Assembly (NCBI RefSeq): GCF_000002425.4
Contig: NC_037275.1
Coordinates: 13,559,987 to 13,623,986 of the forward strand
Source of the DNA: Physcomitrium patens
Taxonomy: Eukaryota; Streptophyta; Bryopsida; Funariales; Funariaceae
Direction of reading: 5' to 3'
Length of the DNA stretch: 64,000 nt
Below the pieces are notes generated by a model that was not told the origin of the DNA, did no database searches, and saw nothing but the letters and a program-made list of their open reading frames with translations. This document shows positions 4,246 through 56,599 of this stretch, one piece after another. How positions within the stretch are numbered: the first letter of the stretch is position 1; the number at the start of each line of letters is the position of its first letter. A program made the translations under genes and the position numbers.

Positions 4246-4256
4246 AGTCTCGACAA
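4246..4256 (-). other. Putative self-priming site of HSE-type chromovirus
   Basis: On the minus strand the 11 bases TTGTCGAGACT start two bases after the LTR end (4259). They pair at 9 of 11 positions with AGTCTTCACAA, which begins 32 nt after the first T of the TATA box in this LTR (minus strand, 4396 to 4386). That is where transcription should start. See the matching, different-sequence pair in the 24894-25454 element. Confidence 0.5.
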
Positions 4257-4258
4257 AT

Positions 4259-4555
4259 TATCACGCATACAAAAATACAGGCTCGAGATCTAACAAGAAG
4301 TTCAAGAAGAACTGGCAAGAATTAAATTAATCAGATGAATACAAGAATAACACCAGAGAGGTGAACTAGAGCTCCAAGAAATATGTTGTGAAGACTGAAG
4401 AATTCTTCAGCCTCGATTCCAATATATACTCCTATTTAGGAAGCTTCTCAAGCAACTTCTACTAACTAAGAAGCTTCTAGAAGGTTCCAGAGACTTACTT
4501 CTAGAAGGTTCTAGAAACTTGTCTCTAGAAGGTTCTAAGGACTATGTCCCTAACA
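4259..4555 (-). mobile_element. 297-bp chromovirus 5' LTR
   Basis: On the minus strand it starts TGTTAGGGACATAG (compare TGTCACGGA-type starts of the related LTRs) and ends GTGATA, a decayed TGACA. Its promoter has a TATATATT box (4428 to 4421), a CTGAAGAATTCTTCAG palindrome just downstream, and heat-shock-element-like repeats 47-107 bp upstream. Gag follows on the same strand. Its outer edge abuts another LTR fragment at 4556, into which it seems to have inserted. Confidence 0.65.
4475..4537. promoter_or_regulatory. Heat-shock-element-like TTCnnGAA array in LTR
   Basis: Three clusters are visible: TTCtaGAAggTTCcaGAG (4475-4492), TTCtaGAAggTTCtaGAA (4499-4516, four perfect alternating units), and a weaker TCTctaGAAggTTC (near 4522-4535). 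Contiguous inverted nGAAn units are what heat-shock factors bind. They lie upstream of the TATA box in the transcription direction of this LTR. The site type is known; its use in this element is inferred. Confidence 0.65.
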
Positions 4556-11640: not shown

Positions 11641-11992
11641 ACGTATTGATATCTTATGGAACAAGCTAATTATATGGTGTATATATAAAAAAAACTTTTC
11701 TTTCAAGTTAAAATATGTGTTTTATAATTTTGACATACATTTGAGATTCTATAGAATGTCACAATGTAGCTCTTAGATAGATAGTATATATAGATGTCAG
11801 AATGAAGCCTTCTTTACTCTTGTCAATACCATTCTTATTTATAGTCTAATTTCAAGAAACTATATTCTTCTTGTCTTTAACAATAACTATTCTAGTCTTA
11901 ATATTATATTATTTTTGAAGTAAATATTTATTCTTCTTTAGCTACATAAGAATATTTTGATGTTCTTCTTGCTTTGATTCATATCATTGATA

Positions 11993-19060: not shown

Positions 19061-19065
19061 GCTCT
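19061..19065. repeat. Target-site duplication GCTCT (left copy)
   Basis: GCTCT precedes the element at 19066 and recurs at 25455-25459 immediately after it. A perfect 5-bp duplication is what Ty3 integrase leaves, so it fixes both ends of the element. Confidence 0.8.
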
Positions 19066-19623
19066 TGTCAAGGACAAGAACTCGATGAAAAAAAAATCCA
19101 GACAAGTGAGCCTTCACTCAAAGAAAGGTAACAAAACATAAATAAATAAGTATGTATATTGAAAGAGAAACTAGAATGGCTATTGCCAAAAGATAAGAAA
19201 ACTAAAGACCCTTGAAACTAGACTAGAAGCAAGAAAGGAGTTGACAAGAGTGAAGAAGGCTTCACTCTTGTCTCTATATATACTATCTAACTAGGGGCTA
19301 CATGTCGACGTTCTATAGGACCTCCAATATGTGTTGACTTTGTAGGACACATGCCTTGACTTACAAAGCAAGTTTTTCTACATGTGGACCACATAGTTAG
19401 CTTGATCTTCAAGCTAACATGTGTGGCACATAGCCAACTTGGTGACCACGTTTCTAATCCAAAAAGTCAATTAAAGATACCTATGAAGTCAAAGCAATGT
19501 CTATAAAGCTTCTAGAAAGCTTTTATATTAAATACTATAGAATTAACTTACTTTTACCTACTTTTATTTATTTCTACCTATTTATATTTGTAATTACTAG
19601 CTTACATGAATATGTCTATGAAA
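19066..19623 (-). mobile_element. 3' LTR of the complete chromovirus
   Basis: In plus-strand order it starts TGTCAAGGACAAG and ends CTATGAAA (TGACA decayed to TGAAA). It aligns throughout with 24894-25454. It preserves an exact 11/11 match (TTGACAAGAGT, 19241-19251) to the internal priming site at 24881-24891. A TATATATA box lies 31 nt upstream of that 11-mer in the transcription direction. Confidence 0.85.
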
Positions 19624-19637
19624 TTACCCTCTCTTCT
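19624..19637 (-). other. Polypurine tract
   Basis: On the minus strand AGAAGAGAGGGTAA abuts the 3' LTR start. The plus-strand sister copy has AGAAAAGAGGATAA in the same place at 46186-46199. This is the usual second-strand primer. Confidence 0.75.
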
Positions 19638-20170
19638 AGGGACGAGTTCCATGAAGAGCGGTCATCATATCTTGAAAAAATCTATGATGTGACAAATTAT
19701 ATTTGCCACATACTCTGATCTTTGTTCTCTTCGAAGATGATTGATAGGGCCTCTCAACCATCAATAATGTCCCATACCAAGGCGGAAAGACTATCCAATT
19801 ATTTGATCATTGTTGAGGCCTTCATAACTTCCTTCGAATAGAACATTTGAAAAACCATCAGCAATTGTTCCTACCTCTAGCAAAATCACCAAATATCAAG
19901 AATTTCTTTCCAAATTGTGATACCAAACGCGTTGTATCTCGCCATCTATTTGAAAAAGAACATGTCATTCTTGAAGATCTTCATCTCAATTGCGTTATCT
20001 TGAAGGTTGTGACAATCGTAATGTCTCGTCTGGCAGGTCAACAAATGAAGGCTCTTGAGTCAAATCCACTGGTTGTTGGTTTTCCATCTCCTGAATGTCA
20101 CAACTACAAAGAAGCTATGAACAAGGATTGAAAATAGAATGTTATCTTGCCTATATGTTGTTTCTTTTAT
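19638..20170 (-). other. 3' untranslated part of the chromovirus
   Basis: No sense-strand frame continues past the chromodomain. The stretch carries many stops on the element's sense strand. A 94-codon frame on the opposite strand (19847-20131) has no recognisable domain and its counterpart in the sister copy at 45690-46199 is broken, so it is treated as chance. Confidence 0.5.
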
Positions 20171-20990
20171 AAAAAAGATTTTCATCTTGATTTTGATGGA
20201 TGTCGTCGATAAAAAGTCTCCAATGCCTTTGCTACATTTGTAAGATTTTTTATGGGTTCCCATGTGCATTCACTAATACCATATCTGTGCCAATGGATAA
20301 GATATTCTAATTTATTTCAGCACTGCCTTGAATCTAAGACTTCTTCTACTTCACACTCTTTATTATTATCCACTTCTATAGGAGGAGGTAGAGCTTGTCG
20401 TCTTCTTGGTATATCCACTATCTTGTATGGTTCAAAAAGAGACACATGGAATACTAGATGGATTTCCATTGACTTCGGTAGATGTAAACGATATGCAACT
20501 AGATTGATTTATACAAAAATAAAAATTAGTCCCTGCCTTCGATAGTCCAACTTGTCACAAGGACAAGTAGTCTTAATATTGCGACGAAGTAGCCATACCT
20601 TATCACCCAAGAAGAATGGTGGATGTTCCTTTCGATAGACAATCGCATTGACCTTTTGTTGTTCTTGAGCCTCTTTTAACTGCGCCTTCATCGTTGCATA
20701 TAGCTCTGATAAATAAATCGCCAAATCTTTCACAGCAAGATTATCAACTTTTAAAAAGTCAAAAGTATCAAGTTGTAGATGATAACCATAATTAGCAAAG
20801 AAAGGTGTTTGTTTTGTAGAAGAATATACCATATTATTGTAAGCAAACTCTGCCAATGGCAAAAGAGTTGTCCAATCATCTTGTTGGTAGTTAATGGTAC
20901 ATCTTAAATATTGCTCCATAACTTGATTAACACGCTCCGTTTGTCCATCAGTTTGAGGATGGAATGTCGAAGATAGTTTTATATCCACTT
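20171..20990 (-). pseudogene. Chromovirus integrase C-terminal part and chromodomain
   Basis: The frame holds FHPQTDGQTERVNQVMEQY, with the catalytic Glu of the D,D,E triad. It continues with LLPLAEFAYNNMVYSSTKQ, FFANYGYH and a GPY/F-like region (KVWLLRRNIKT, CDKLDYR). After a frame break near 20505 it reads on into a chromodomain (IEVDNNKECEVEEVLDSRQ ... YLIHWHRYGISECTWEP) ending near 20175. This order defines a chromovirus. One frameshift and one stop are the main lesions. Confidence 0.8.
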
Positions 20991-21756
20991 TTAGAATCTT
21001 GAAAAGAATTCACCAAAATCTTGATACAAATTGAGTTTCCCTATCTAATATAATATCCTTAGATAATCCATGATAGCGATAGATATTGTCAAGAAAGAGC
21101 TAAGCTGTTTCTTCACCTATGATAGATTTTGTAAATGGTACAAAATGTGCCATCTTGGTAAAATAATCTACTATCACGAATATAGAATCATAAGAACCTG
21201 AAATTGGAAGATCCGTCATGAAGTCTATAGAAACAGAAGACCATGGTTGTTTTGGAATGGATAATGGTTGAAGAAGTCCAAAAGGTCGATGACAAGGTGC
21301 TTTTTATCTTGAGCAAACATCACATGATTGTACAAAATCTTTGACTGCCTTCTACATTTGAAGCCATCAAAAATCCCTAGATATCAGCTCCAAAGTCTTA
21401 TTATATCTAAAATGTCCTGCTGTTGGGAAGTCGTGCCAAGCTTGAAGAATACGTAAACGTGCTTCTCCTTCTAGGATATATAGACATCTTTCGAAATAGA
21501 ATAGGTTGTTCTTGAATTCAAATTTACAGAGATCACGAAATTTAGAAGAATTATTCTTGATATCATGAACAAGAGGGTCTGAAGACATACTTAACTGGAC
21601 TTGCTTAAGAAAAGTTAAATCAACAATCAAAGTTGATTTTATTACTCGAAGATGAAATTGCTCCGGCTTCAAGAGAACCGTTCTTTGTTGCTCAAAAGCT
21701 GCATCTCCTTCTTTTGGAGCAAGATAAGAACGTCTACACAAGGCATCGGACAAACC
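20991..21756 (-). pseudogene. Chromovirus integrase: zinc-binding domain and catalytic core
   Basis: From 21753 the frame covers the RNase H end and the integrase N-terminus, including LRILQAWHDFPTAGHFRYNK and TLELISRDF (HHCC region). After a stop at about 21366 the core continues with SIDFMTDLP (first catalytic Asp) and ILDRETQFVSRF (second Asp; the usual Gly after Arg is Glu). It keeps all three catalytic acids when read with the next segment, although three stops interrupt it. Confidence 0.75.
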
Positions 21757-22392
21757 TTATTGTTTTCTTGGCCGATAAGTGATGTTGAACTCGAATCTTG
21801 ATAAAGACATGCTCCAACGAGCTTGACGATAATTTAATACGTGTGTTAATATAAAATATTCAAGGTTCTCGTGATCCGTATACACAGTTACTGGACTAGA
21901 AGTGCCTTCTAAATAATGATGCCATTCTTGAAAAGAATCCACAATTGCAAGAAGTTCTTTGTCATGGATCTCATAATTGATTTCTGCTGCTGAGAATTTT
22001 CTTGAATAAAAGGCTACTGGATGAAGTTTGTCATCTGTTCCCATTTGTGATAAAACCGCACTCAGAGCAAAGTCTGATGCATCTCTTTCCATAAAGAATG
22101 CTTTGGAAAAATCAACACGATACAAGATTGATGTAGAAACAAACGTTGTCTTCAAAGATTCAAAAGCAACTTCTGCTTTCTGATTCCATTAGAGTTTGTC
22201 TTTACAAGTCAAATGTGTAAGTGGAGCTACAACTCAAGAGAAGTCTTTGATGAAGATTCGATAGTAGTTGGCAAATCTCAAAAAACATTGGACATCTCTT
22301 ACCATTTTTGAGATCTTCCAATCTATAATACTTTGAACTTTCTTAGGATCCATCATAAGTCCATTTGAAATGATGTAACCTAAGAAATTGAC
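21757..22392 (-). pseudogene. Chromovirus RNase H
   Basis: Frame 22155-21757 contains KAFFMERDASDFALSAVLSQ (first catalytic acid), YEIHDKELLAIVDSFQEW (the E of the RNase H core) and VYTDHENLEYF (TDH). This is the usual Ty3 arrangement with no stop inside. The text between 22156 and 22392, the reverse transcriptase connection, has stops. Confidence 0.8.
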
Positions 22393-23043
22393 TTATATAG
22401 TGTGGAATACACACTTTTCTATCTTGGCATAGAGTCTTGCATCTCTTAATTTTTGTAACACATGATGAATATGAAGTTTATGTTCTTCTGAATTCTTAGA
22501 ATAGATCAAGATTTTTTCTAGATAACAGACCACAAAATCGTCCAAAAACTCTCCAAAAACATCATTCATTAGATGTTGAAAAGCTGCTAGTGCATTTGTA
22601 AGTCCAAAAGGCATTATGTTGTATTCAAAATATCTATACCTAGTTTGAAACGCAGTCTTCCATTCATCTCCTTTTTTGATGCATACTAGATTGTAGGCTC
22701 TTCGAAGATTTATTTTTGTATAAATCTTAGCTTGATTCAGCTGATCAAGAAGTCTAGATATTAAAGGTAGTGGATACCTGTTCTTGATGGTAATCTTGTT
22801 GAGTCCTCGATAATCAACATACATCCGCAATGATCCATCTTTTTTCTTCACAAATAGAATTGGAGCTCTTACCGGAGATTTAGAATGGCATATGAAATTC
22901 TTGGCTAGATTTTCTTCAATATACTCCTTGAGTTCAGACAACTCATTTTGTGATAAACTATAGATTGGTCCAAATGGCGGTTGTGCTCCTTCTTGAAGGT
23001 CAATTGAGCAATCATAGGAATAATATTTCGGGAGTGTATCCAC
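22393..23043 (-). pseudogene. Chromovirus reverse transcriptase with destroyed active site
   Basis: The 216-codon open frame holds [69 protein letters not shown] and LIYSKNSEEHK. The catalytic YLDD is YLEK, so both metal-binding Asp residues are gone (codons GAA AAA). The enzyme cannot be active as written, even though the frame is open. It must have been mobilised before these changes or in trans. Confidence 0.85.
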
Positions 23044-23571
23044 ATTCTTTTTTTCAAATATATCTTGAAATTCTTGATATTAGCTTAGAATGCTACTTGA
23101 AGTCTTTTCACCAGTAGGAACAAGTGTGGCATAAATAATATATGGTGATTCTTTCATAGCAGCATGCAAGAAAGCTTTTGCACCTATAAATACGGGTTTA
23201 ATTGAATTGGACTTATGACTCTCTACTTGATTAATTATACTATTAATTATACTTTTAGAAAAAGTAAAAGTTTGGAAAATCCAATCTATTTGAGGGTTGT
23301 ATTTTTTTAACCACGATAAACCTAAAATGACTGGATTAGATGGAGATCTAATGATATTAAATACTACAAAACTATTATGACCATTGTATATTACTTCTAT
23401 AGGAAGGATTTCGTGAGTAATATCTCTAGAAGACAATGGACGACTATCTATGACTTCTACATGAATAGGTTTAGTTTTCTTTATTAAAGATATGCTATGT
23501 CTTTTAATAAATTCTTCATCTAAAAAATATGCTGAGGCTCCTGAATCTAACAAGGCACAGACTTTGTAATG
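23044..23571 (-). pseudogene. Chromovirus aspartic protease
   Basis: Open frame of 157 codons starting MLDSGASAYFLDEEFIK, with an intact catalytic D-S-G. It is followed by VILGLSWLKKYNPQIDW. The Gag side is separated by a stop near 23570. It is the best preserved protease among the related copies in the window. Confidence 0.8.
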
Positions 23572-24650
23572 TTAAGGTCCTAAAATAACATTTAATGTAA
23601 AACAAGGAGAGGGCTCTGAGGAGAGAATAGGATCTTTATTAGATGTTATGCAAGGTTCCAGCCGCATAGTCCCTATTGTAGCTGGATAAACTCGTTTTCT
23701 GACATATTGTCTTCTTTCACAGCCATACTCTTCATTTTGTGATTGTGTCGTTTCTTTGGATAATGTTGAATTGTGTGCTTTGGTTTTCCACGATATAAAC
23801 ATAATCCTTCATGACGACGACGAGTCTTTTCTTGCTCAGTAAGAGGTTTGAAACGTACTGCATCAATTTGCATATCCTCTACTTCCGAATGTATATGTTG
23901 AAGAGGTGTTGGTATTGCCATTGAATTATAGTAACGTTGAGGTCCACTTATATGGTTTTCAAATCGGAATTCAAAAAGGCGATTGTCATACTTCACAGCA
24001 AAGTCAATTTCTTGACTCAATGTTTGAGGATCAAGTAAGTTGAGCATTAATTTTTTTACCTCATATTGTAATCCATAGAAAAATTGGCTAATAAGTGCAG
24101 CATCATCTCACTGGATATCAGTTGCAAGTTGTCAAAATTGTGAAGCATACAACGTTACTAATCATTGACCTTATCGTAAAATACGGATCTTATTGGTTGC
24201 AATACAAATTGCATCATGTTCTCCATACATGCATCAAAACTCCGCCAAAAAAGCCTCTAGATTATTCAATATTAGATCTCGCCGTTCAAGAAAAGATGAA
24301 AATCAAGATAGTGCTGAACTTGAAAGAAGCGTACCAATGAATCTAACTTGCGATCCTAGAGTTGGATAGCTTTGGGATTGAAGTTCAATCACAAGTTACA
24401 CTTGATTGATAAATCCTCGAAACTTAGATCTGGTACCATCAAACTTCTCGGGTAGGGCAATTCTTGATTCTGTAACACTTGAAGGATGTTCCACCATAGG
24501 AAAAAGGACATGATTTGGTACAGATGTTGAAGCAGCTCCAACCATTTCTATATCTTCACTTCTTGCCAATTTTGTTGCTCCTTGTGGTGGTAAATTAAGT
24601 TGATGCATCGCAAGTATTAACTCCCTCAATTGCTCTTGCATTTGTGCCAT
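23572..24650 (-). pseudogene. Chromovirus gag
   Basis: Starts at the ATG at 24650 or slightly upstream: MAQMQEQLRELILAMHQL (coiled coil), then a Ser/Thr-rich linker and FDGTRSKFRGFINQ (capsid start). After frame breaks at about 24390-24060 it resumes with LDPQTLSQEIDFAVKYDN and a zinc-knuckle region, GLCLYRGKPKHTIQHYPKK. The knuckle's second Cys is Arg and its last Cys is Tyr. The plus-strand sister gag at 43156 has the same order. Confidence 0.75.
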
Positions 24651-24880
24651 TGCATTCTTTATTTCAACAAGTTCTACTATGATAACACTTAGAAAAGAGA
24701 AGATGTCTAATAACGCTCAAGAAAAATAGAAGAGAGTACTTGAGAACAAAGAAAATACTAAGGATAATATCAGTTTAGAAGAGGGTAATCCGTAACTTCT
24801 AATATGTTTATAACTTATCAAGAAAAAAAGAGTAATCTACTCTTAATCAAGATTAGACAAAGCTCTAATATTGTAGGTGT

Positions 24881-24891
24881 ACTCTTGTCAA
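24881..24891 (-). other. Putative self-priming site (11 nt)
   Basis: On the minus strand TTGACAAGAGT begins two bases (GA) after the 5' LTR end. It is the exact complement of ACTCTTGTCAA, which begins 31 nt downstream of the first T of the TATATATA box in family-1 LTRs (exact in the 3' LTR of this element, 10/11 in its 5' LTR). No full tRNA match is seen at the LTR border. The fission-yeast element Tf1 primes from the first 11 nt of its own mRNA in this geometry. Confidence 0.65.
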
Positions 24892-24893
24892 TC

Positions 24894-25454
24894 TGTCAAG
24901 GACAAGAACTCGATGAATAAACAATCCAGACAAGTCAGCCTTCACACAAAGAAATGTAACAAAATATAAATAAATAAGTATGTATATTGAAAGAGAAACT
25001 AGAATGGCTATTGCCAAAAGACAAGAAAATTAGAGACCCTTGAAACTAGACTAGAAGCAAGAAAGGAGTTCACAAGAGTGAAGAAGGCTTCACTCTTGTC
25101 TCTATATATACTATCTAACTACGCGCTACATGTCAATATTCTATACAACCTCCAATATGTGTTGACTTTGTAGAACATATGCCTTGACTTACAAGGTAAG
25201 TTTTTCTACGTATGGGGCACATAGTTAGCTTGATCTTCAAGCTAACAACATGTCTGGTACATGGCTAACTTGTTGACCACGTTTCTAATCCAAAAAGTTA
25301 ATTAAAGATACCTATGAAGTCAAAACAACGTCTATAAAGCTTCTAAGAAGCTTTCATATTAAATACTATAGAATTAACTTACTTTTACCTACTTTTATTT
25401 ACTTCCACCTATTTGTATTTGTAATTACTAGCTTACATGAGTATGTCCGTGACA
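24894..25454 (-). mobile_element. 5' LTR of the complete chromovirus (561 bp)
   Basis: In plus-strand order it starts TGTCAAGGACAAG and ends TCCGTGACA, so the termini TGTCA/TGACA are perfect inverted repeats. TATA box at 25110-25103 (minus), predicted transcript start at 25079. A 13-bp palindrome with a 4-nt centre (GACAAGAGTGAAG/CTTCACTCTTGTC in the consensus) lies between TATA and start. Flanked on the right by the duplicated GCTCT. Confidence 0.85.
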
Positions 25455-27290: not shown

Positions 27291-28121
27291 GTTTGTCATA
27301 AATGGACTCTATTGTTGTCATGATGCTCTTTGTGTCACTAATAGACTCTATTGTTGTTATGATGCTCTTTACAATGTCTACTTTCTAATGACCATAAATC
27401 TTGTTTCTTTGAGCTCCAACTAAGAAGACTATCATGTAAAAATGCTAATCTCACTATTTCAAAAGTAATATAATATTAAGAATAGAATGGAGATTACACT
27501 ATTGATCTCCATTAAAGTAGGGGTTTTGGTACATGTCATAATGTCAATGAAGTTATTTTTTAGTAGAGGTTTAGTAACTAGTGAGTACCTAGTAAGAAAC
27601 AATGACTTCTCAACAGTGTAAAGAGTGAGTGTTTGAAATTGTATTACAGTGCTATTTTTCTTATAATAAAGAGCGTTAGTTGTTAATTCTCAATCAGTGT
27701 TTAGAGTGCAGTGAAATAAAAGCAGCTACGGGTGAAGCTTGAAACCAAAAAATAGAGAATTCAAAGTGCTCTAAATTGGTAGTTATCGGTTGGATTTGGT
27801 GTATGACAGCACCAACTTCTTAACCAGCCCAATGACTAACACGAAATAACAACAACTAAGGATTTGCTCTTCCACATCATGCTCGCAATCAAAAACAATA
27901 TTGCCATTGCCAGTTTCGTTGCAGTAGTCGGCAGTGAATGAGGCGGCCTCCTTCCGATCATTGAATTAAAAAAAGTTTCGTTATGTTCACACAAGGCATT
28001 TTGTTAGACTAACTACCTAACTAAATTTGCTATGCCACAATCTCCTACTCGAAAGACCAACCATCCACGACAAGCGTCTCCATGTCCACCCGGCGGCCAT
28101 GCACTTCTCCAAAAGACGGAG
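27291..28121. other. No gene seen; boundary between retroelements and gene island
   Basis: A 46-bp unit containing GACTCTATTGTTGT.ATGATGCTCTTT occurs twice (about 27305 and 27346). The base composition rises toward the gene at 28122. From about 28010 the sequence aligns with 37865 onward, so the segmental duplication begins here, just 3' of the gene. Confidence 0.5.
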
Positions 28122-29921
28122 TTACAGAGGTGGGAGCACCTCGAATCGGAACAGTACCGTATCAATGTTGTGGCCAGTGTTCGGCGAGGTCCATCCGAAC
28201 TTACGTACTCGCCGACCCACTCTCCACCCTCGCGGAACACCGAACCCTTCCACGAGCTGTAAGTGGTTCTTAACCTGCAAGAAAGGGAATCCAGCTTTTA
28301 CCCAAGCCTCATTGTGCGAATCCGGAATCTCGTCCACGGAGATGGTCACCGACTTTTGCGCCAGTTGGAACATTCTCACTAGCACTGCACACATTTCCAC
28401 CTCGTCAAGGTACTGGAGGGTCGAGACACACACGACGTGGTCGAACGATGTGGTGGTGTCCATAATCACGTCCTGAAGGGGACCAATCTTCACTTCCTTG
28501 TATGTCTCCGGGATTGGATTCTTCTGAACCATTTGCTCGGATACGTCATTGCCCACGATCGTGCTCAGTTCTATGCCGTCTTTGCGTTTCCTTTGATGCT
28601 CGTGGAGCATGCGACTAAACTTTCCCGTGCCGCTGCCCAATTCAAACATCGTGCCGGAATAATCGTAGTCGGCGATTAGAAATTCGTAGTTCGAGGCCAT
28701 CGTTCCCAAATAACTTTCGTAGGTCGTCGAGAAGGAGTCGAATACCTTGGCCACAGGAGCAGCCTTGATCTTGTGCTTTCCCAGCTGCTGCAGTCTGCTG
28801 TTGATCATCACGTTCACAAGCGCGCGATGACCGCCGGGAAACGTCTCGCGGATCACGATGTCCTCCCACTCGTGCTCCCAGCGGTAGAACACCGCCGGCC
28901 CCGCGTTGACCTCCAGGATGAAGGGCTTACCGTCTGACGCTCGAACCCTAATATCCACATTGCCCCAGCTGTTTCCTGCCATTTGGTTGACGTGCCAGGC
29001 TCTCTCCGCCAGATTGCGCAACATGTCGAAGAGCGTCGGGTCTTTGCAACGCACCAGGAGCTCCTCACGCATCTCCGGGTGGAACTTGATGTCGAAAGTC
29101 ATGAAATCAGCGCCGGCGTTGATTGCGGGGCATCGGTAGGTAGTCGGGTTTAGCGCCACGGGCGTGTTGCCCATCTCGATGAGAATGACGGAGTAATCGC
29201 GCCCAGGTATGTACTCTTGGACGACAATGTCAGTATCACTACCGTCGAAATGAGCAACTCCGTTGACATTAGCACTGTCGTTAACGTGATCACTTCCATC
29301 GACATGGGCGATTCTATTGCCGTTGACGCTCCCGTTATCGTGATCACTTCCGTTGACATGGGCACTCCCGTTTCCGTCAGCGCTCCTATTGCAGTGATTG
29401 GCGATGGTTGCGGCGGCTTCCTTTCGACCGGGAGCAAGATACTCATTGATGCGGGCCAGCTGCTGATCAAGTTCGCTTTGGTTCTTGCACACGGACCTTT
29501 CGTCGATAAACATTGACGCGCACATCTTCGCCGGTTTCACAAACACCGGGAACTTCATGTCAGCACCCCTTGCCGGCACTGGCAATCCAGATTTCTTGGC
29601 CGCGTTGTAGAAGTCGAGCTTCGATCGTCTCAAGACCTTGCTCTGATAACCCACAATTGGAACTCCCAAAGACTCCAAGTATTCAGTAGCCTCTATACCC
29701 GCGACGGTATCCTCGAGTTGGCCCCACATGAAGTTGAGGAACATGTCGAAGCCCTCGGCGACGGCAGCATCGATCTGGGCGTTGGCAGTGGCTTTGTTGA
29801 TGTAACGGTGATGGAATTCGTGTTGGGAGGTGAACATGGCGGGGTCTGGAAAGCTGGGGTCATTGATGGCAAGGGCTTGGGTGGAGTCTGCGTAGGGAGC
29901 CTGGAGAACACAGATCTTCAT
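28122..29921 (-). CDS. ATP-grasp ligase / SAM-methyltransferase fusion protein, copy 1
   Basis: An intronless 599-codon gene. Residues 1-120 resemble the pre-ATP-grasp domain of D-Ala-D-Ala-ligase-type enzymes (NFMWGQLEDTVAGIEATEYL, then SKLDFYNAAKKSGLPVP). The ATP-grasp fold follows: FPVFVKP with Lys129 as likely ATP contact, VVQEYIPGRDYSVILIE (233-249), NSWGNVDIRV (317-326) and FILEVNAGP (334-342) with metal-binding Glu337 and Asn339. The family Pro after Asn is Ala340 here. Residues 184-229 are a Gly/Asn/Ser/His-rich repeat linker. Residues about 395-599 form a class I methyltransferase: FELGSGTGKF (426-435, SAM motif I), VGNDVSEQM (456-464), VVCVSTLQYLDE (496-507). ATP-grasp ligases join a carboxylate to an amine or thiol; the methyltransferase may modify the substrate or product. 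Cytosolic, as no signal or membrane segment is seen. Substrate unknown. GC-richer than all surroundings. The start at 29921 gives the first full N-terminal strand. Confidence 0.85.
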   Translation of the reverse strand: MKICVLQAPYADSTQALAINDPSFPDPAMFTSQHEFHHRYINKATANAQIDAAVAEGFDMFLNFMWGQLEDTVAGIEATEYLESLGVPIVGYQSKVLRRSKLDFYNAAKKSGLPVPARGADMKFPVFVKPAKMCASMFIDERSVCKNQSELDQQLARINEYLAPGRKEAAATIANHCNRSADGNGSAHVNGSDHDNGSVNGNRIAHVDGSDHVNDSANVNGVAHFDGSDTDIVVQEYIPGRDYSVILIEMGNTPVALNPTTYRCPAINAGADFMTFDIKFHPEMREELLVRCKDPTLFDMLRNLAERAWHVNQMAGNSWGNVDIRVRASDGKPFILEVNAGPAVFYRWEHEWEDIVIRETFPGGHRALVNVMINSRLQQLGKHKIKAAPVAKVFDSFSTTYESYLGTMASNYEFLIADYDYSGTMFELGSGTGKFSRMLHEHQRKRKDGIELSTIVGNDVSEQMVQKNPIPETYKEVKIGPLQDVIMDTTTSFDHVVCVSTLQYLDEVEMCAVLVRMFQLAQKSVTISVDEIPDSHNEAWVKAGFPFLQVKNHLQLVEGFGVPRGWRVGRRVRKFGWTSPNTGHNIDTVLFRFEVLPPL

Positions 29922-30240
29922 GGCGAATGGTTTGGTACTAATTCCGCAGCTTGATCAGAAATCGCTGAGGAGGAATACGCCCGTACGAAAGAAGCTGTGC
30001 TTGTTCTCGAAACCTGCAGATGGCCAGGAAAGTCAACAGAATGTCATGCCTGCACATGCATATTACAGTCACATACAAGAGTATAAAAACTCTCGAACGA
30101 ACGAAATTTGTTTTTCCATGTAGCAGCAGTCTGGCTAGTACCGTGGGCAGAAGAAAACATGAAAGGCACGATGATAACTATTCACATCGGATGGGACGTG
30201 ACCGTGAAATCAGACCAGCGTTAGTAGCTCTTATTACAAA
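29922..30240 (-). promoter_or_regulatory. Conserved 5' flank of copy 1
   Basis: About 250 bp upstream of the start codon match 39773-40025 with only about three substitutions, better conserved than the 3' half of the genes. A TTTTTATACTC box (minus strand, near 30088-30078) could serve as a weak TATA about 160 bp upstream of the ATG. The exact transcription start cannot be read from the sequence. Confidence 0.45.
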
Positions 30241-30516
30241 CACCTGAAATTCATGCACCGAGGATTGAGTGTCCAGGACTATGTGACCCCTGAAGCTGGT
30301 CTATCACAACGTGAATTGTATCTTCGAATTGCACCACCTTTGGAAAATTATGACCTAGACTCCCTGCACGAAGTAGACTCTGCGAGTAAACAAGAATAAG
30401 ACGCGGCTTCTGCAACAAGGAGGCCTTCAGACCTTACCGAATATGAAATTGCGGCATGCAGGAACGTCCGCCTCTAAAAGAGTAGAATGGCTGCACGCAT
30501 GTCGAGAGGGATGAGA

Positions 30517-31605: not shown

Positions 31606-31908
31606 TGTTGAAAATCAACAAGTACTTGCTTAATTACAACTACATAGAGATTAAGCATATTATTTTGCTAATAGTCAAAACACAGCAAAGAATTAAAGGA
31701 AGTTACTATGGTAGCACCTAGGATTTAGTTAGATGAAGTAAAAATGGATATAATATCAAAAGGATGGAAGTGGCCTCGTTGCTTACCAAACCACCACCTA
31801 TAAGTAAAAGGTGTTGGAAGTAAGAATTATCTTACTCCACACTTTTGTTTGTATGCAAACCTTGCTGATACTAAGTGTTTGTAGCTTTTAGACTTCTTTT
31901 CTTCAATA
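31606..31908 (+). mobile_element. Ty1/copia 5' LTR (303 bp)
   Basis: Starts TGTTGAAAATCAACAAG and ends CTTCTTTTCTTCAATA. It aligns without gaps to the 303-bp 3' LTR with about 26 differences by eye (near 8.6%), so the insertion is not recent. The primer site follows at once. Confidence 0.9.
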
Positions 31909-31922
31909 GGTTATGGGCCCAC
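31909..31922 (+). other. Copia primer site complementary to the anticodon arm of initiator tRNA-Met
   Basis: GGTTATGGGCCCAC follows the LTR directly. It is the complement of GTGGGCCCATAACC, the anticodon stem-loop region of plant initiator tRNA-Met, not of the tRNA 3' end. Drosophila copia primes from a 5' half-molecule of the same tRNA, cut in the anticodon loop, using the same GGTTATGGGCCCA core. Inference: this element uses a half-tRNA primer. Confidence 0.75.
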
Positions 31923-32471
31923 TGACATTTGCTTGAGTGTTTTGAAGTTCTTTGAAGTGGTTGTTGATGTGTGGAGTAGATCAAGTTGTTGTTGGTGATG
32001 TTAGGATTTAGAAGTACCTAACTTTTAGATTCAGATCTAGATCTAGATCTTAATTTACTCTTACTTGTAGTTAAGAGCATTTTAGTATTGGTGTTTGGTT
32101 TTTCACCTTAAGGCAAAGTTATACAATACTTTTATTGTGCTATTGCTCAAATAGATCTTTGGTGGTGTAACTTTGTAGTTTCATGTTCTAAAGATGCTGA
32201 TTGTGCTTAAAAGGCCTCTTATGGTGTATAGATATAATTTGTGAATATAAGAGTGATATTTGAGTGGCAAGTCAGATTTGAGACATTAAGATAGGTCATT
32301 AGACTTGTGAGAAGCCTTAGAAGTGAAGTTGAAAGTGTTTTTGAGAGTAAGAACACTAGTTTGTTTACAAAGAAGGATTCTATGATTCTAAAGTAGCAAT
32401 ATTTTTTGCTGATTTTGAGAGCATTAGGACTTCTTCTTTTAATTTTTTTTTGATAAATCTCTCGCTTCGAT

Positions 32472-33235
32472 ATGGCTTCAAGTGAAGGTAAAGGATTGAG
32501 AGTTATTGAGAAGTTTAGAGGTGAGAATTTTTACCATTGGAAGGTAAAAATGGAGCTTTTGTTGGCGTCTTTAGATCTTTAAGATATTGTAGATCAAAGT
32601 GAAGAGGCTCTAAGCATAGATGCTTATATGAAAGAGAAGAAGAAATTCAAATGTCATGAAAAGAAGGTTTTTGGATTGATTGCAACCAATGTGGATGAAG
32701 CTAACTTCTCTCACATTATTTCTTGCAAAGAATTAGCGGAAGCATGAAAGATTCTTTGCAACATCTATGAGAGCAAGAACTTATCTAACATCATCTATAC
32801 AATGAAGAAGTTCTTCACTTGCAAGATGGAAGAAAGTGAAGACCTCATGGCTCATGTCAATAAGGTAAAGGTTCTTACAAACAAACTACCAATTGTTGAT
32901 AAGCCTTTAGAAGAAAGTGATATTGTCATGACCTTGTTGATGACTCTTCCTGAATCCTACAACTACCTTATAATGGCATTGGAATTCATTAAGCTAAAAG
33001 AGCTTATAATGGAATATGTCATAATAAGACTTTCTCATAAAGTAACCAAGAAGAAAGAAAATGAGCCTCAAAGTAAAGATTCAATACTCTAGTCACGTCA
33101 AGGCAAGGACAACTATTCAAATCAACAAGGTAATGTCAAATCTTGCTTCATTTGTCGCAAAGTAGGCCATTTTGCTAGAAATTGCTACAAAGATAAGAAG
33201 ATAGAGAAAGAGAATGCAAATAGTATGCAAGATGA
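32472..33235 (+). pseudogene. Copia gag
   Basis: Starts at the ATG at 32472 (MASSEGKGLRVIEKFRGENF, then WKVKMELLLASLDL). It runs through the copia capsid region (MKKFFTCKMEESEDLMAHVNK, then LPESYNYLIMAL) to a perfect CCHC zinc knuckle, CFICRKVGHFARNC, near 33143. Three or so stops replace Trp or Gln. The reading order and knuckle are intact otherwise. Confidence 0.85.
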
Positions 33236-33630
33236 GTTTGGAGGACAAGATTATATATTCAAGGCAACAAATGGGACCTCTATGGATGCCATGTCAAGAT
33301 GGATTGTGGATTCAGGTTGTTTTAAGTATATGACATCTTATAAGTATTCAGTTGACATTTATGATGCTATTTCAGCATTAAAGGTGGTGTTGACAGATAG
33401 TGGTACATGTGAAGGCATTGGAATTGCCTCTATTATGATAGAAGTGGTTGTGAATAGAAAAACCAATAGGATCAGATTCAAAAACGTCTTTCATGTGCCT
33501 AAGATGAAGCAAAACCTACTTTTGATGAGTAAACTTGTAATAGAAGGTTTTAAAGTTCAATTCGACATGAATGGATGTTTTGTAAAAATATTGAGTTGAA
33601 TTAAGGTCTTCAAAGGCTTTAAAGAGGGAA
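33236..33630 (+). pseudogene. Copia aspartic protease
   Basis: WIVDSGCFKYMTSYK near 33300 is the copia protease active site (D-S-G; the usual next residue, often Ala or Cys, is Cys). FKNVFHVPKMKQNLLLMSKL near 33480 is the conserved tail before the GAG-pre-integrase domain. The frame is open from 33225 to a stop at 33599. Confidence 0.85.
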
Positions 33631-34670
33631 ATTTGTACTATCTCATTTATAAGAAGGTGAATGGAGTGGAGGTAGCTCCATTTGTAGAGTTTACATCAAA
33701 CCAAGACAAGTTGAAAATATGGCATCATCGCCTTGGCTATTTGAATGTGAAGAGCATGAGAGAGCTCAAGTCTATGGTAAGTGGCTTAAATCTTTGCAAT
33801 ACGAGCCAAAATATAAAAGAACTTGTACGTAAAAAATGCATACAAGGCAAACAACAAAAGACCTCATTTCCAAGTAACTTAGCAACATATGCTACCACGT
33901 TGCTAGAGATTGTCCATTCTGATATATGTGGACTTATGAAGAACACAAATAATGGAAGATCAAAGTATTTTTTGACTTTTGTTAATGATTATTCAAGAAA
34001 GATTTGAATTTACATTCTTAAATCCAACAGTGAATGCTTTTAGAGGTTTAAGGAGTTTAAAGCACTTATTGAAAAATAAAATAAATGTAAGATCAAGATG
34101 CTACGTACGGACAATGGAAGTGAGTACATGTCTAAGTAATTTGATATTTATTTGAAGAATGAAAGAATTTCTAGACAAACTACAACTCCGTACACTTCAC
34201 AATAAAATAGTGTTGCTGAAAGGGCAAATCAAACTATTGTAGAGATGGCAAGGAGCATGCTTCATGCTCAACACCTTGGTTATGAGTTTTGGATGGAAAT
34301 TGTGGTGAATGCAGTGTATACAAGAAATTACTGTCCAACAAGTGCTCTTGTATCAATGACACCACAAGAAACTTGGAGTAGAAGACAACCTTGCATTTTC
34401 CATATGAGGACCTTTGGTTGCATTGCATATGCAAAAATACCAAATTATATGAAGTCCAAACTTGATGCAAAAGGTACAAAGTATGTGTTTCTTGGTTGTT
34501 GTGAAGGTACTAAGGCATATAGGCTAATATACTTAAAAAACAAGAAGGTCATCAAAAGTCATGATGTTGATTTTTTGGAGCACAAGAGTGCTTGTAAACA
34601 CTTGGAGATGTATTCAAGTGAGAGTAATGGTATGTTTGTGGACACATCTTTGAATTCAGCAAAGAAATAA
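33631..34670 (+). pseudogene. Copia integrase
   Basis: KIWHHRLGYLNVKSMRELK, then KKCIQGKQQKTSF, form the HHCC zinc domain. The core keeps the catalytic acids: HSDICG (first Asp), RTDNGSEY (second Asp) and AERANQTI (Glu). The C-terminal part has FGCIAYAKIPNYMKSKLD, then FLGCCEGTKAYRL. Stops at about 34004, 34040, 34077, 34137 and 34204 each correspond to a single C-to-T or G-to-A change of Trp or Gln. Confidence 0.9.
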
Positions 34671-35175
34671 GAAGATGAAGACAATAAAATTGATGACGAT
34701 GAAAAGACAAAGAAGGTTGAAAAGATGAAGGCTCCTATAATTGCTAGAAATAGTAATAAAAGAAATGAAGATGTTGAAGATTATGATGATGATGATGATG
34801 ATGAGTACCAACATTAAGTGAGAAATGACAAGGTTTAAGAGAGGAGGTTGAAAAAGAACATAAAAAGCAGCAACGTAAATCTTCTTCTATAAATGAAAGA
34901 AAATATCTTTTAAGAGAAAAAAGACAATGTGGTGAATGGTGGAAGGATCACATCTTTCCTCAAGTAGGTGAAGAACATGCAAATATTGTTCTTCTTGTTG
35001 ATCAGTTATCTTTGTAAGATGCATTAAAGTCCCAAGAAACAATTAAGTGAGAGAAGGCTATGGAAGAAGAGTATCAATCTATTATGGACAATGATACATG
35101 GAAATTGACACCCCTTTTAGCAAATCGATCTAGTATTGGTTGTAAGTAGGTGTTTAGAACTAAAAAAGATGCAAA
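34671..35175 (+). pseudogene. Copia linker and start of reverse transcriptase, then deletion
   Basis: After an Asp/Glu-rich linker (GAT repeat, 34782-34803) the text WKLTPLLANRSSIGCK-stop-VFRTKKD shows the very start of copia reverse transcriptase. It then jumps directly to MQNVPYKVTIGSIMYAM, which lies after the polymerase domain. The whole catalytic core with its YVDD is missing, from family knowledge roughly two hundred codons or more. Confidence 0.8.
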
Positions 35176-35840
35176 ATGTTCCATATAAGGTAACAATAGG
35201 CTCAATCATGTATGCAATGGTAGCCACAAGAGTAGACCTTGCATATGCAGTGAATGTTGCAAGCCAATACATGTCTAAGGCTAGACCATTGCATTTGACA
35301 ACGATAAAGAAGCTATTAAGGTACTTAAAAGGTACAAAAGACTTCAAATTATGCCTTGGTGGTAAGAACATTGATTTGTTAGGTTACTATGATGTGAATT
35401 GGACTGTAGATGCAAATGATAGAAGATCCACAATAAGATTTGTCTTCTTCATTGGAATAGGAGCTATTTCATGGAATTGCAAGAGACAACCTTCCATTGC
35501 AAGATCAACATTGAAGGTAGAGTACATGGCAGCAAGTCATTGTGCAATGGAGGTGTGTTAGATAAAGCAACTCTTAGAAGACATTAGACTAGGGCAATTA
35601 GAAGCAACTCTCATTATCTATGACAATTAAGGATGTCTTGCATTTGCCAAGAATCCAAAATAATATTCAAGGCCCAAGCACATTGATGTTCAACATCGTT
35701 TCATACGAGAGAGGATTGAAGATGGAATAATAGGTATGAAGTATTGTACTACAAATGACATGCTTGTTGATGTGCTTACAAAGGCATTAAAGGATAGATA
35801 TCATGAGTTGATACAGAGATTAGGATTGAAAGCCTTTTGA
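35176..35840 (+). pseudogene. Copia RNase H
   Basis: VTIGSIMYAMVATRVDLAYAV, then LLRYLKGTKDFKL and a core with GYYDVNWTVDANDRRST (catalytic Asp), ARSTLKVEYMAAS (Glu) and IYDN-stop-GCLAFAKNP. It ends KHIDVQHRFIRERIEDG and LTKALKDRYHELIQRLGL before TGA at 35838. Stops at Trp and Gln codons only. Confidence 0.85.
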
Positions 35841-35848
35841 ATGTTAAC

Positions 35849-35858
35849 AAAGTGGGAG
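35849..35858 (+). other. Copia polypurine tract
   Basis: AAAGTGGGAG abuts the 3' LTR start TGTTGAAG at 35859. This is the expected place and composition for the plus-strand primer. Confidence 0.8.
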
Positions 35859-36161
35859 TGTTGAAGATTAGCAAGTACTTGCTTAGTTACAACCACATAG
35901 AGATTAAGCATAATATGTTGCTAATAGTCAAAAGGTAGCAAAGAGTTAAAGGAAGTTACTATGGTAGCACCTAGGGTTTGGTTGGATGAAGTAAAAATGG
36001 ATGTAATATCAAAAAGATGGAAGTTGCCTCATTGGTTAGCAAACCACCACCTATAAGTAAAAGGTGTTGGAAGTAAGAATTATCTTACTCCATACTTTTG
36101 TTTATGTGCAAACCTTACTTATGCTAAGTGTTTGTAGCTTTTAGACTTCTTTTCTTCAATA
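35859..36161 (+). mobile_element. Ty1/copia 3' LTR (303 bp)
   Basis: TGTTGAAGATTAGCAAG to CTTCTTTTCTTCAATA, exactly as long as the 5' LTR. It is followed by the duplicated GTTTA at 36162. Confidence 0.9.
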
Positions 36162-37652: not shown

Positions 37653-37972
37653 CAGAGAGATCATTGAGGCTGGGAAACGCTCCATTGCAGTGAAATTAGT
37701 ATTAGTGAAAGTAACAATTGTATTTTAGTATTAGCCAAGGCCTAATTAACCCTATCCCCACCCAGCTATGTAATGGTTACTCCCTATTTGAATTATTTCC
37801 ATTTAAGTCAGAAAAAACAATAAAAAAATAATAATAATATAAAAGACGAACAAAAAGAAGCTAATTGGCTAGCTAAATTCGCTATGCTAGGTCTCCTACT
37901 CGAAAATCCAATCATCCTAACAAAGCGTCTCAATGTCCACCCAGCAGCCATGCAATTCTCCATAAGATGGAG
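37653..37972. other. Intergenic; second duplication arm starts near 37865
   Basis: No gene seen. An (AATA)n-like stretch lies near 37822-37840. From about 37865 (GCTAAATTCGCTATGC) the sequence aligns to 28019 onward, downstream of copy 1. Confidence 0.5.
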
Positions 37973-42385: not shown

Positions 42386-42949
42386 TATCACGGATGTACA
42401 AATTTACCCTGATAATTATTTAGATAATAAAAATAAGTCAATGTAAGTAAAAGTAGATAAATAGGATAATTTCTTGTGGAAAGCTTCCTAGAAGCTTCAT
42501 AGACACTGCTTTGTATTTATATATGTCTATCAGTAATTGATAGGTTGAAACTTGGTGAATAATGATGCGACATGTCGACATTTTGACTACTTGTATATTT
42601 TGACTACTTGTATATAGTACAAGTTGGATATATGGGGCACACCTAAGAAACTTGTCTTATAAATTAGACATGTATCTTGCAAGTTGGACACATATTAGAG
42701 GTCCTATAGTATGTTGTCACGTAGTTCTTACTTAAGTAGTATATATAGAGGCAAGAGTAAGGCCTTCTTTACTCTTGTCGGCTCTTTTCTTATTTTTAGT
42801 CTAGTTTCAAGAGTCTTATGTTTTCTAGTCTTTGACAATAGCCATTCTAGTTCTTCCTTGAATATACATACTTTCTTCTATTTTGTCATTTTTCTTTTGA
42901 CACAAATTCCACGAGTTTATGCATCTTTTTCTAGTTTGTGTCCTTGACA
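42386..42949 (+). mobile_element. Family-1 chromovirus 5' LTR (564 bp)
   Basis: Starts TATCACGGATG (decayed TGTCACGGA) and ends TCCTTGACA. TATATATA at 42740-42747; predicted transcript start 42771 (ACTCTTGTCGG), again 31 nt downstream. The GCAAGAGTAAGGCCTTCTTTACTCTTG palindrome spans the start. Confidence 0.75.
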
Positions 42950-42951
42950 GA

Positions 42952-42962
42952 TTGATAAGAGT
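42952..42962 (+). other. Putative self-priming site of the plus-strand copy
   Basis: TTGATAAGAGT lies two bases after the LTR. It pairs with the predicted transcript start at 8 of 11 positions; the three mismatches are all of the C/T or G/A kind produced by deamination elsewhere in this element. Confidence 0.5.
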
Positions 42963-47046: not shown

Positions 47047-48196
47047 CTTTTTAAGACAATATTATATCTTCTTTTAAAGGTTTGAGCTAAAAATTCATCT
47101 AAAAACTTAAGATATGGCTCCAACCATTACTATGAACAAATCACTTACTTATTGCCTTTTATTTGGATGCACTGATTTTAATTCTCTATAACTTCTTCAT
47201 CTGAACTCTAAATTCATAAAGTAATATATAAAAAGTTTAGTCGAGGAATAGCTCTCTTCAATCCTAATCATTGATTCTTTGTTTCTTTCCATAAACATAT
47301 GTTATGCCCCAAAGAGTGATAATAGGTATAAAATTGACACCTTAACTTTGAGCGCCAATAACTCTTTTATAAAAACTCCAAATCACACAAAATTTACATC
47401 CAATCCATATCCAAAAACTTTAAATTTTTGATCCTAGCCTCCAAATTTCGAATGACCTTAAAAGAGAAATCTTAATCCCTAATAAGGCCTCAGGTAGCCT
47501 CGTTGAAGTCCATTGGGTATGGCCATCGATCAATAGGAATGAAGAACTCCATTCTTTGCCTTCATCCACCCATGTCTTGCTTTCATCCTTCTCAATAACC
47601 CTCATACTAGTTAAGATTTTCTTCTTTAGGTTCCAATCTCTTCTCAAGGCTTCATACTAAATATTTAAGTCCTATAATTTTTTTAAATGCTATAATCAAA
47701 ATAAATAAAACTTAAAATAATATTTTTTATATCTAATCTCTTTAAATTAATCTATTAATTATTATAATATACACCAAGACTTATTAACATATTATATATT
47801 CTAATTTATTTTTACACATTATAAGCAATTACAATATGACAGCGTGTTGACATGTCAACCTCTTGTAGTATAAGTTGGACATATGGGACACACCTAAGAA
47901 ACTTGCCTTATAAAATTAGACATGTGCCTTACAAGTTGGATACATATTAGAGGTCTTAAAGCATGTCGCCATGTAGTTCTTACTTAAGTAGTATATATAG
48001 AAGCAAGAACGAGGCCTTCCTCACTCTTGTCAACACTTTTTTTGCTTTTAGTCTAGTTTCAAGAGTCTTATATTTTCTAGTCTTTGGAAATAGCCATTCC
48101 AACTCTTCTTTGAATATACATACTTTCTTCTATTTTGTTACTTTTCTTTTGACACAAATTCTATGAGTTTATGCATCTTCCTCCAATTTGTGTCCT
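46200..48196 (+). mobile_element. Family-1 3' LTR split by a ~1.45-kb insertion
   Basis: Starts TGTCACAAACATAC. LTR text is at 46200-~46384 and ~47842-48196 with the TATATATA box near 47991 and ACTCTTGTCAA 31 nt on. The last few bases (TTGACA) are missing where another chromovirus fragment joins. Confidence 0.65.
46385..47841 (-). repeat. ~1.45-kb repeat inserted in LTR (third copy)
   Basis: Ends read TGTTGTTGAGATAG and TTACAATATGACA, compatible with LTR termini. It carries two TA microsatellites (about 46485-46520 and 46993-47044), which may explain its greater length. Internal blocks match 25858-27115 in reverse. A 75-codon minus-strand frame at 47420-47647 has no recognisable domain. Confidence 0.5.
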
Positions 48197-53590: not shown

Positions 53591-53931
53591 ATAAAACAGG
53601 ACCGGTCTATCTCAAATATCAAAGATCCCTTCTAATCTACATCAACATGAAACCTCATCTTAAGATAAGATAAAATAGACCAAAATAAAATTGAATAAAA
53701 CTAAATAAAATAGAATACGAAAGACAAAACTAAGCAACCAAAATTAGAACAAAATTATATAAAATATGAAGATACAAAATCAAATTATATTAAGAAAAAA
53801 GGTCCAAAGCCACACCTGACTAGATGTCATGAAAGGCCTTGGCTAATCCTATTTATATTTTGTTCTATCATCCTAGAATTTTTATAATATTTTAAGATAA
53901 TGGATATTATTTAAATAATTATTGTCGTTAG
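53591..53931 (-). mobile_element. 5' LTR of the third Ty3 family, first part (interrupted)
   Basis: Aligns with 49151-49540 (GTCTATCTCAA.TATC, GACAAAACTAAGCAACCAAA and CCTATTTATATTTTGTTCTA blocks). It breaks at 53932, where a ~10-kb element is inserted, and continues at 63903 (CACCTTAAACTTCTTCTAGAAGG). Confidence 0.7.
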
Positions 53932-54698: not shown

Positions 54699-54756
54699 TA
54701 GCTCCATTCCTAACTGTGCAGCATTCTTACAAACATCTAAGATAAAGCCAAACTGG

Positions 54757-56420: not shown

Positions 56421-56599
56421 TATGAAACATTACGTAACACTCCTCACTCCCACTACTACTGCGTTTAAGATTATCGTTGTAGACTTTCTACTACCGAAAC
56501 TATGCTCCAAAAAAAAAAACTCTAAACAAAATACTAAAAATAGCCAACATGGAGTGTCCTTTTCTTTACTGTTTATTCGGTTATGGATCAAGAATCCGT

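What the first reader, a model, noticed from the sequence alone, without database searches (positions are those of the whole stretch)
24881..25110. Chromoviruses appear to self-prime: 11 nt inside the LTR pair with the 5' end of their own transcript
Seen: in the element 19066-25454 the 11-mer TTGACAAGAGT begins 2 nt inside the 5' LTR. Its complement ACTCTTGTCAA begins 31 nt after the first T of TATATATA in the LTR (exact in the 3' LTR at 19251-19241, 10/11 in the 5' LTR). The same offset recurs in plus-strand copies (TATA 42740, 11-mer 42771; near 47991 and 11786). In the 4259-4555 LTR the sequence differs (AGTCTTCACAA with TTGTCGAGACT, 9/11) but the position (32 nt from TATA) and the 2-nt spacer are kept, so the pairing has changed on both sides. 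Known: Tf1 of fission yeast primes from the first 11 nt of its mRNA. Inferred: these plant elements use the same mechanism; I know of no established plant example.
Basis: partly seen in the sequence, partly recalled or inferred. Interest (0 to 1): 0.92.

Follow-up and report, generated by a model that had tools for sequence, protein, structure and literature searches.

The report
Moss retrotransposons that prime themselves
An abundant moss jumping gene, and relatives probably from other non-seed plants, appear to start copying themselves by folding back the first 11 letters of their own RNA instead of borrowing a transfer RNA, and several carry a hairpin at the point where that RNA should begin.

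Summary
In element 25454-19066 (minus strand) the 11 nt beginning 2 nt inside the 5' LTR are complementary to the LTR 31 nt after TATA. The element is a chromodomain Ty3/gypsy element of the Tf1/sushi-Tcn1 group in a 470-Mb genome, very probably Physcomitrium patens. Self-priming is strongly supported: the 11-mer differs between families, yet LTR and primer site agree within each (full Watson-Crick in 16 of 30, 9 of 29 and 9 of 20 moss copies read; also in 7 copies from other organisms, picked by exact match). The match starts mostly at a C|A step 31-33 nt after TATA and usually stops after 11-12 nt. The idea is not new: Neumann et al. 2019 predicted self-priming for plant Tcn1 elements from complementarity. 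Not seen in the papers I could search: a 12-13-bp hairpin across the U3/R border whose 3' arm contains the first 9 primer nt and differs with them (one family lacks it), and the same layout in contigs probably from the fern Azolla. I propose that the hairpin masks the primer sequence wherever U3 is attached, leaving only the true RNA 5' end to prime; that is inference. No transcript ends were available.

The parts
19066..25454 (-). chromodomain Ty3/gypsy LTR retrotransposon (element A), decayed copy, TSD AGAGC
24894..25454 (-). 5' LTR
19066..19623 (-). 3' LTR (about 92% identical to the 5' LTR)
25103..25110 (-). TATATATA of the 5' LTR
25069..25079 (-). inferred transcript start and self-primer (R 1-11), ACTCTTGTGAA in this copy
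19241..19251 (-). same 11-mer in the 3' LTR, exact ACTCTTGTCAA
24881..24891 (-). primer-binding site TTGACAAGAGT, 2 nt (GA) after the LTR
25071..25100 (-). U3/R hairpin of the 5' LTR (12 of 13 bp in this copy, loop 4); 3' arm includes R 1-9
19243..19272 (-). U3/R hairpin of the 3' LTR, 13 of 13 bp
42740..42962 (+). family B copy: TATA, R (42771), primer-binding site TTGATAAGAGT (42952-42962)
47992..48033 (+). family B LTR piece: TATA and exact 11-mer (48023-48033)
11785..11826 (+). older LTR copy: TATA and exact 11-mer (11816-11826)
4247..4428 (-). family M copy: TATA (4428), R AGTCTTCACAA, primer-binding site TTGTCGAGACT (4257-4247)
22396..23079 (-). reverse transcriptase piece
21760..22188 (-). 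RNase H domain piece

Best explanation
These are Tcn1-branch chromoviruses of the Tf1/sushi group that prime their own reverse transcription. Transcription starts at the A of a C|A step about 31 nt after TATA (inferred). The first 11 nt of the RNA pair with the site 2 nt inside the 5' LTR; RNase H cuts after nt 11 and the released 11-mer primes minus-strand DNA (inferred from Tf1). Because the plus strand copies the primer, new elements can rewrite the site from their own RNA 5' end, which would explain why both differ together between families. Second, weaker part: a hairpin straddling U3/R masks the primer sequence in molecules that also carry U3 (the 3' end of the RNA, plus-strand DNA), leaving the true 5' end free to prime.
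For: R:PBS pairing: full Watson-Crick A 16/30, B 9/29, M 9/20; with G.U 21/30, 18/29, 13/20. Seven copies of other origin pair fully (L061, four F1, F2, F3), but six of them were picked by an exact match, so only their other features are independent: site 2 nt after ...CA, hairpin, C|A. Cross-table: own-family pairing 11 of 11 (B's representative 9), unrelated families 3-8. Start context: C|A in A 30/30, M 20/20, L061, F1 4/4, F2, F3; in B, -1 is C or T in 27/29 and +1 is A in 27/29. TATA 31 nt away in A 29/30, B 28/29; 32 in M 20/20, L061, F1 4/4, F2; 33 in F3. The pairing usually does not extend past its ends (A 28/30 and 29/30, M 18/20 and 20/20, F1 4/4 and 4/4). One M copy (L128) has a change on both sides that keeps 11/11. 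RT tree: the nine self-primed rows lie on one side of a 100/99 branch from the three rows with iMet-type motifs. Hairpin.
Against: No transcript 5' end was seen. Many copies no longer pair fully. B's representative pairs better with A's site (10) than with its own (9), and in B pairing can extend past the ends in 10 and 11 of 29 copies, in L061 by one. In M copies CpG decay hits R and PBS independently (L114, L119). Some PBS variants are shared by several A copies without a matching R change (L010/L016/L017, still G.U; L004/L021/L023). Folding gives R:PBS pairing above 0.5 probability in 35 of 59 A and B copies (four rows mis-anchored). L062, in the plant clade, has a damaged pair. The hairpin is absent in F3 (L067) and L079/L082, only 7 bp in L083, and in F2, F3 and L083 not stronger than the R:PBS duplex; F3's R pairs 7 of 9 with A's U3 arm, so arms are not strictly private to a family.
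Confidence: 0.9

Rival explanations
1. A tRNA or tRNA fragment is the primer and the LTR match is a by-product.
For: Most plant LTR elements use tRNAs (PMC6317226); other elements here seem to: 53927-63903 shows TGGCGCCGTTGCC after its LTR and 31606-36166 a stretch like the complement of the iMet anticodon arm (tRNA identities recalled); L090, L095, L096 hold an iMet-type motif, L095 with one mismatch, next to a shown LTR end only in L096.
Against: No TGG at the site in the self-priming families read; the site differs between families while tRNAs are conserved; it matches the element's own R. A direct tRNA scan of the host did not complete.
Confidence: 0.04
2. The U3/R hairpin is a DNA-level promoter dyad (protein binding or cruciform), unrelated to priming.
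For: It sits between TATA and the inferred start in the families that have it.
Against: Its sequence differs between families while its arms still pair; a G.U pair is present in M and L061; in the representatives the arm covers R 1-9 and not the AA of R 10-11, except L066, where R 10 can also pair.
Confidence: 0.3
3. The hairpin is kept by mutation (template switching that corrects quasi-palindromes), not by function.
For: Near-perfect arms with a 4-nt loop are typical substrates (recalled); arms track R between families.
Against: Does not explain why it straddles the start; the window holds no other perfect 12-bp hairpin with a loop of 3-8 outside AT repeats.
Confidence: 0.25
4. The hairpin in the 3' LTR serves RNA 3'-end processing, giving the two R copies different fates.
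For: It can form only where U3 is attached; retroviral R hairpins regulate polyadenylation (recalled).
Against: Not tested; no poly(A) site was mapped.
Confidence: 0.15
5. Chance complementarity in an AT-rich repeat.
For: With one mismatch allowed the 11-mer occurs 12 times in the window, 2.2 expected; the 42771 copy alone is weak.
Against: 5 of 5000 shuffles reach 11/11 anywhere, none in the start slot; separate families agree.
Confidence: 0.01

Closest known systems
Tf1/sushi group: Tf1, Tf2 of Schizosaccharomyces pombe, Tj1, Tosmo elements
   Same: chromodomain Ty3/gypsy elements; SH3_Tf2-1 domain in L065, L067 and L083; primer-binding site complementary to the inferred RNA 5' end; 11 nt as in Tf1 (Tf1 length recalled and from the finding); a second duplex next to the primer site in the fern-like elements, as in the three-duplex 'pretzel' described in PMC10085805 (passages read)
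   Different: a 12-13-bp hairpin across U3/R (whether Tf1 has one was not checked); the second duplex is not evident in the moss families; cleavage and priming not shown
Tcn1 clade of mosses and club-mosses (Novikova 2010, PMC2864245; Neumann 2019, PMC6317226)
   Same: host range, chromodomain, RT placement beside fungal elements, self-priming predicted in 2019
   Different: the earlier prediction used complementarity of at least 10 bp starting 0-5 bp after the LTR; the passages I read mention no start position, co-change or hairpin; PMC2864245 found evidence of neither tRNA- nor self-priming in the Selaginella element and no Tcn1 clones in ferns
RLG1 of Physcomitrium patens (PMC7466625, passages read)
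   Same: chromodomain gypsy family, most abundant element, expressed in protonema, polymorphic between accessions; probably families A and/or B
   Different: identity with RLG1 inferred, not tested; that paper's main text has no occurrence of PBS, self-prim or transcription start
TAR lineage of Ty1/copia (Houba, Osr-1)
   Same: self-priming predicted in plants
   Different: copia, not gypsy

Membership tests
Tf1/sushi-Tcn1 chromoviruses | Ty3/gypsy domains: protease, RT, RNase H, integrase | tested here: met
   RVP_2, RVT_1, RT_RNaseH; Integrase_H2C2 just under its cutoff (24.7 of 25.5 bits); a Ty3 chain among the two best PDB matches
Tf1/sushi-Tcn1 chromoviruses | chromodomain at the integrase C-terminus | tested here: met
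   PF00385 in one of two pieces of element A (E 2.4e-10), in L065, L067, L083
Tf1/sushi-Tcn1 chromoviruses | group I chromodomain aromatic residues (Y24, W45, Y48; PMC3350952 passages) | tested here: inconclusive
   read by eye: C at the first position in this decayed copy, W and Y at the other two
Tf1/sushi-Tcn1 chromoviruses | RT groups with non-seed-plant and fungal members, apart from tRNA-primed chromoviruses | tested here: met
   12-row plant clade 98/94, fungal rows beside it; Tanacetum and iMet-motif rows beyond a 100/99 branch; only three named references
[quoted passage not shown]
   by sequence; that R 1 is the 5' end is inferred from TATA distance and C|A
Tf1/sushi-Tcn1 chromoviruses | second duplex beside the primer site ('pretzel') | tested here: inconclusive
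   8 of 8 pairs (with G.U) in 5 of 6 fern-like rows, 7 in L069, but 5-8 also between rows; not evident in moss A, B, M or L061
Tf1/sushi-Tcn1 chromoviruses | RNase H cleavage after nt 11 and priming from it | not testable with these tools
   needs RNA or cDNA
tRNA-primed chromoviruses (CRM, Tekay, Reina, Galadriel) | TGG-initial tRNA 3'-end site 0-5 bp from the 5' LTR | tested here: not met
   criterion from PMC6317226
TAR Ty1/copia | copia domains | tested here: not met

The most novel reading that the evidence does not exclude
Self-primed retrotransposons of non-seed plants carry a U3/R lock hairpin: the primer sequence is present three times (U3 arm, R start, primer site) and the three evolve together, so that a copy of R attached to U3 cannot act as primer or target and only the authentic RNA 5' end can. 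This would solve how a self-primed element with two identical R copies tells its 5' end from its 3' end.
Probability: 0.3. Interest if true: 0.72.

Novelty: new variant of a known kind. Interest (0 to 1): 0.52.

Why it matters
In the passages I read, self-priming is demonstrated for Tf1 and implicated elsewhere (PMC4600332); in plants it is a prediction from complementarity. Agreement of primer and site within families that differ from one another is stronger evidence, in an element type expressed in a laboratory moss, so the mechanism becomes directly testable in a plant. The U3/R hairpin, if it is a lock, is a new part of the mechanism and a marker for finding further self-primed families. 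Probable fern elements extend the range.

Tried and rejected
Tried without gain: viral-contig scans with the RT piece and with its alignment found no relative. A loose three-copy scan (7-mer arm within 40 nt) did not separate real from shuffled contigs clearly (22 of 43 contigs; 42 of 215 shuffles) and is not used. A de novo scan of 268,412 moss bases for CA + 2 nt + site + upstream complement gave 148 hits, 60 with TATA, against 66 and 10 in a reversed control; among the 60 commonest combinations printed I saw no start-type family beyond A, B and M, the rest was not shown; some TATA-flagged hits are an inverted match inside the element. The L072 hairpin lies in the stretch before its RT that I take for gag and was dropped. 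L083's 14-nt match (circular contig, no clear TATA) and L079/L082's 9-nt match are probable but left out of the pairing counts; L083 is counted as self in the tree. In one search, TATA-flagged pairs in L072, L084 and L098 were not at LTR ends and were dropped. An earlier count said 7 of 13 hairpins at starts; recounting one search gives 6 of 12. Rows dropped: L037 (motif not found); L101, L102, L097, L098 and the family B fragment from the tree. For 30 of the 42 contigs no primer type was assigned, many lacking a 5' LTR; L062 among them has a damaged pair.

Full report
WHAT IS THERE. Element A occupies 25454-19066 on the minus strand, with a 5-bp target duplication AGAGC and LTRs about 92% identical. 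Pieces match retroviral aspartyl protease, RT, RNase H and, just under the cutoff, the integrase zinc domain, Ty3 among solved structures, and a chromodomain. It is decayed by stops and frame changes. The window lies in an unnamed 470-Mb genome of 101 contigs. I take it to be Physcomitrium patens from size and base composition (recalled) and retrotransposon content; that is inference. The dominant chromodomain gypsy family of that moss is RLG1, with 5092 complete copies, expressed in protonema and polymorphic between accessions (PMC7466625, passages); A and/or B are probably RLG1. PMC6911290 (passages) names Tcn1 elements in P. patens.

See the observation check for coordinates, copies and chance levels.

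FAMILY COPIES. Genome searches returned 40 scored matches each for A (2824 first-look candidates), B (6201) and M (1960). I read 30 of 40, 30 of 40 (29 usable) and 20 of 40, the best-scoring ones. Full Watson-Crick R:PBS pairing: A 16/30, B 9/29, M 9/20; with G.U 21/30, 18/29, 13/20. R lies 31 nt after TATA in A (29/30) and B (28/29), 32 in M (20/20).

OTHER ORGANISMS. A scan of prokaryote genome contigs with the RT alignment found 42 loci that look like eukaryotic retrotransposon contigs in bacterial or archaeal records. Six carry an exact 11-12-mer pair at an LTR end with TATA upstream: L061 (bin AVDCRST_MAG81, by its label perhaps a soil crust; primer site identical to moss M), L064, L065, L069 (TTGTTCGCCTT), L066 (TTGTTCACCTT), L067 (TTGATCAAGAGT); another, L106, came by similarity. 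They were chosen by exact match, so their full pairing is by construction; the 2-nt spacer after CA, the C|A start and the hairpin were not asked for. L062-L069 are from a bin labelled Trichormus, the genus of Azolla's cyanobiont (recalled; listing), so a fern source is likely but unproven; among named hits of L065's RT, Adiantum has the highest identity (76%), though a frog protein has the best E-value. L083, which groups with Penicillium, has a 14-nt match. Three contigs (L090, L095, L096) hold an iMet-type motif. In the RT tree the plant self-primed rows fall in a 12-row clade with Adiantum (98/94), beside fungal rows; the iMet-motif rows and Tanacetum lie beyond a 100/99 branch. Many rows on the self-primed side have no known primer type.

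CO-CHANGE. Six kinds of primer (A/B, M/L061, F1, F2, F3, L083) keep the geometry but not the sequence. In the cross-table of seven representatives (L083 not in it), R pairs 11 of 11 with its own site (B's representative 9, and 10 with A's) and 3-8 with sites of unrelated families; near relatives A/B and F1/F2 reach 10. The match begins at C|A and ends at nt 11 (12 in F3), with few extensions outside B. This is what a site copied from an 11-nt RNA primer should look like. Against it: CpG decay unbalances R and PBS in several M copies, and a few PBS variants are shared by several A copies without a matching R change.

SECOND DUPLEX. In fern-like rows the LTR end next to the site can pair with U5 just after the primer: 8 of 8 positions (with G.U) in 5 of 6 rows, 7 in L069, with bases differing on both sides between F1 and F3; but pairing between rows is 5-8, so the control is weak. 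It resembles the Tf1 'pretzel' (PMC10085805, passages). The moss families show no such duplex.

THE U3/R HAIRPIN. Between TATA and R 9 lies a hairpin with a 4-nt loop: mean 12.6 Watson-Crick of 13 in A, 12 + 1 G.U in L061, mean 11.5 + 0.5 of 12 in four F1 copies, 11 of 12 in F2, weaker in B (9.7 + 1.8 of 13) and M (10.3 + 1.4), absent in F3 (3 + 1 of 12). Its 3' arm is 3-4 nt of U3 plus R 1-9; R 10 can also pair in L066. Cross-pairing of R 1-9 with U3 arms of other families is 1-8 of 9: 8 between A and B and 7-8 between F1 and F2, 6 for M with A, 7 for F3 with A, own 7-9 except F3 with 1. In the window the only perfect 12-bp hairpins with loop 4 outside AT repeats are element A's two; in 233,814 bases of L061-L102, 6 of 12 hairpins of 11 or more pairs lie at such starts, one of them in a 3' LTR piece of L062. 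Predicted energies favour the hairpin over R:PBS in A, B, M, L061, F1, not in F2, F3, L083. The part upstream of R (GAAG/CTTC in A, GAGG/CCTC in some B copies, GGT/ACC and GAT/ATC in F1) shows paired changes, though many B copies carry G.U or mismatches.

MECHANISM. Shown by sequence: complementarity, position, agreement within and difference between families, hairpin. Inferred: start site, cleavage, priming, rewriting of the site, masking. R occurs twice in the RNA and again in plus-strand DNA; where U3 is attached the hairpin can form; only the true RNA 5' end lacks the U3 arm. Such a lock would stop the 3' copy from competing and the plus strand from folding onto itself. Exceptions (F3, L083, L079/L082) mean it cannot be required in the whole group.

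WHAT IS KNOWN. Neumann et al. 2019 (PMC6317226, passages) predicted self-priming for the majority of plant Tcn1 elements by complementarity. PMC2864245 (passages) found neither primer type in the Selaginella element and no Tcn1 clones in ferns. PMC3601003 (passages) mentions 5' hairpin priming in chromoviruses. Searches with self-priming, chromovirus, moss, Tcn1 with fern, self-primer, inverted repeat and hairpin/palindrome terms showed no U3/R hairpin in the listings or passages I saw. The library holds open-licence papers only; three of Levin's original papers were not held, so a description there cannot be excluded.

Noticed in passing
28009-30276 and 37861-40127: A 2.3-kb direct repeat (95.6% identical) holding a 610-residue open frame on the minus strand in both copies, with D-Ala-D-Ala ligase C-terminal/ATP-grasp and methyltransferase matches, some under their cutoffs; a duplicated gene with a copia element between the copies.
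   Followed up: partly
31606-36166: Copia element whose likely primer site (GGTTATGGGCCCACTG) looks like the complement of the iMet anticodon arm, i.e. half-tRNA priming (tRNA identity recalled).
   Followed up: partly
53927-63903: Element with about 770-bp LTRs and a TGGCGCCGTTGCC site after the LTR on the minus strand: a tRNA-type site in the same window.
   Followed up: no
L061-L102: Bacterial and archaeal records (Trichormus, rumen and soil bins, even named Streptomyces and Mycobacterium) hold contigs that look like eukaryotic retrotransposons: probable contamination.
   Followed up: partly
L065, L067, L083: Contigs with a 55-base end overlap, so probably circular collapsed assemblies of repeats, with long open frames.
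   Followed up: no
L079, L082: Relatives beside Penicillium in the tree, with a 9-nt match between the likely primer site and the LTR about 44 nt after TATA, without the hairpin.
   Followed up: partly
19061-19071: The 3' LTR end TTGACA plus the target duplication AGAGC reads like the primer site by coincidence.
   Followed up: yes
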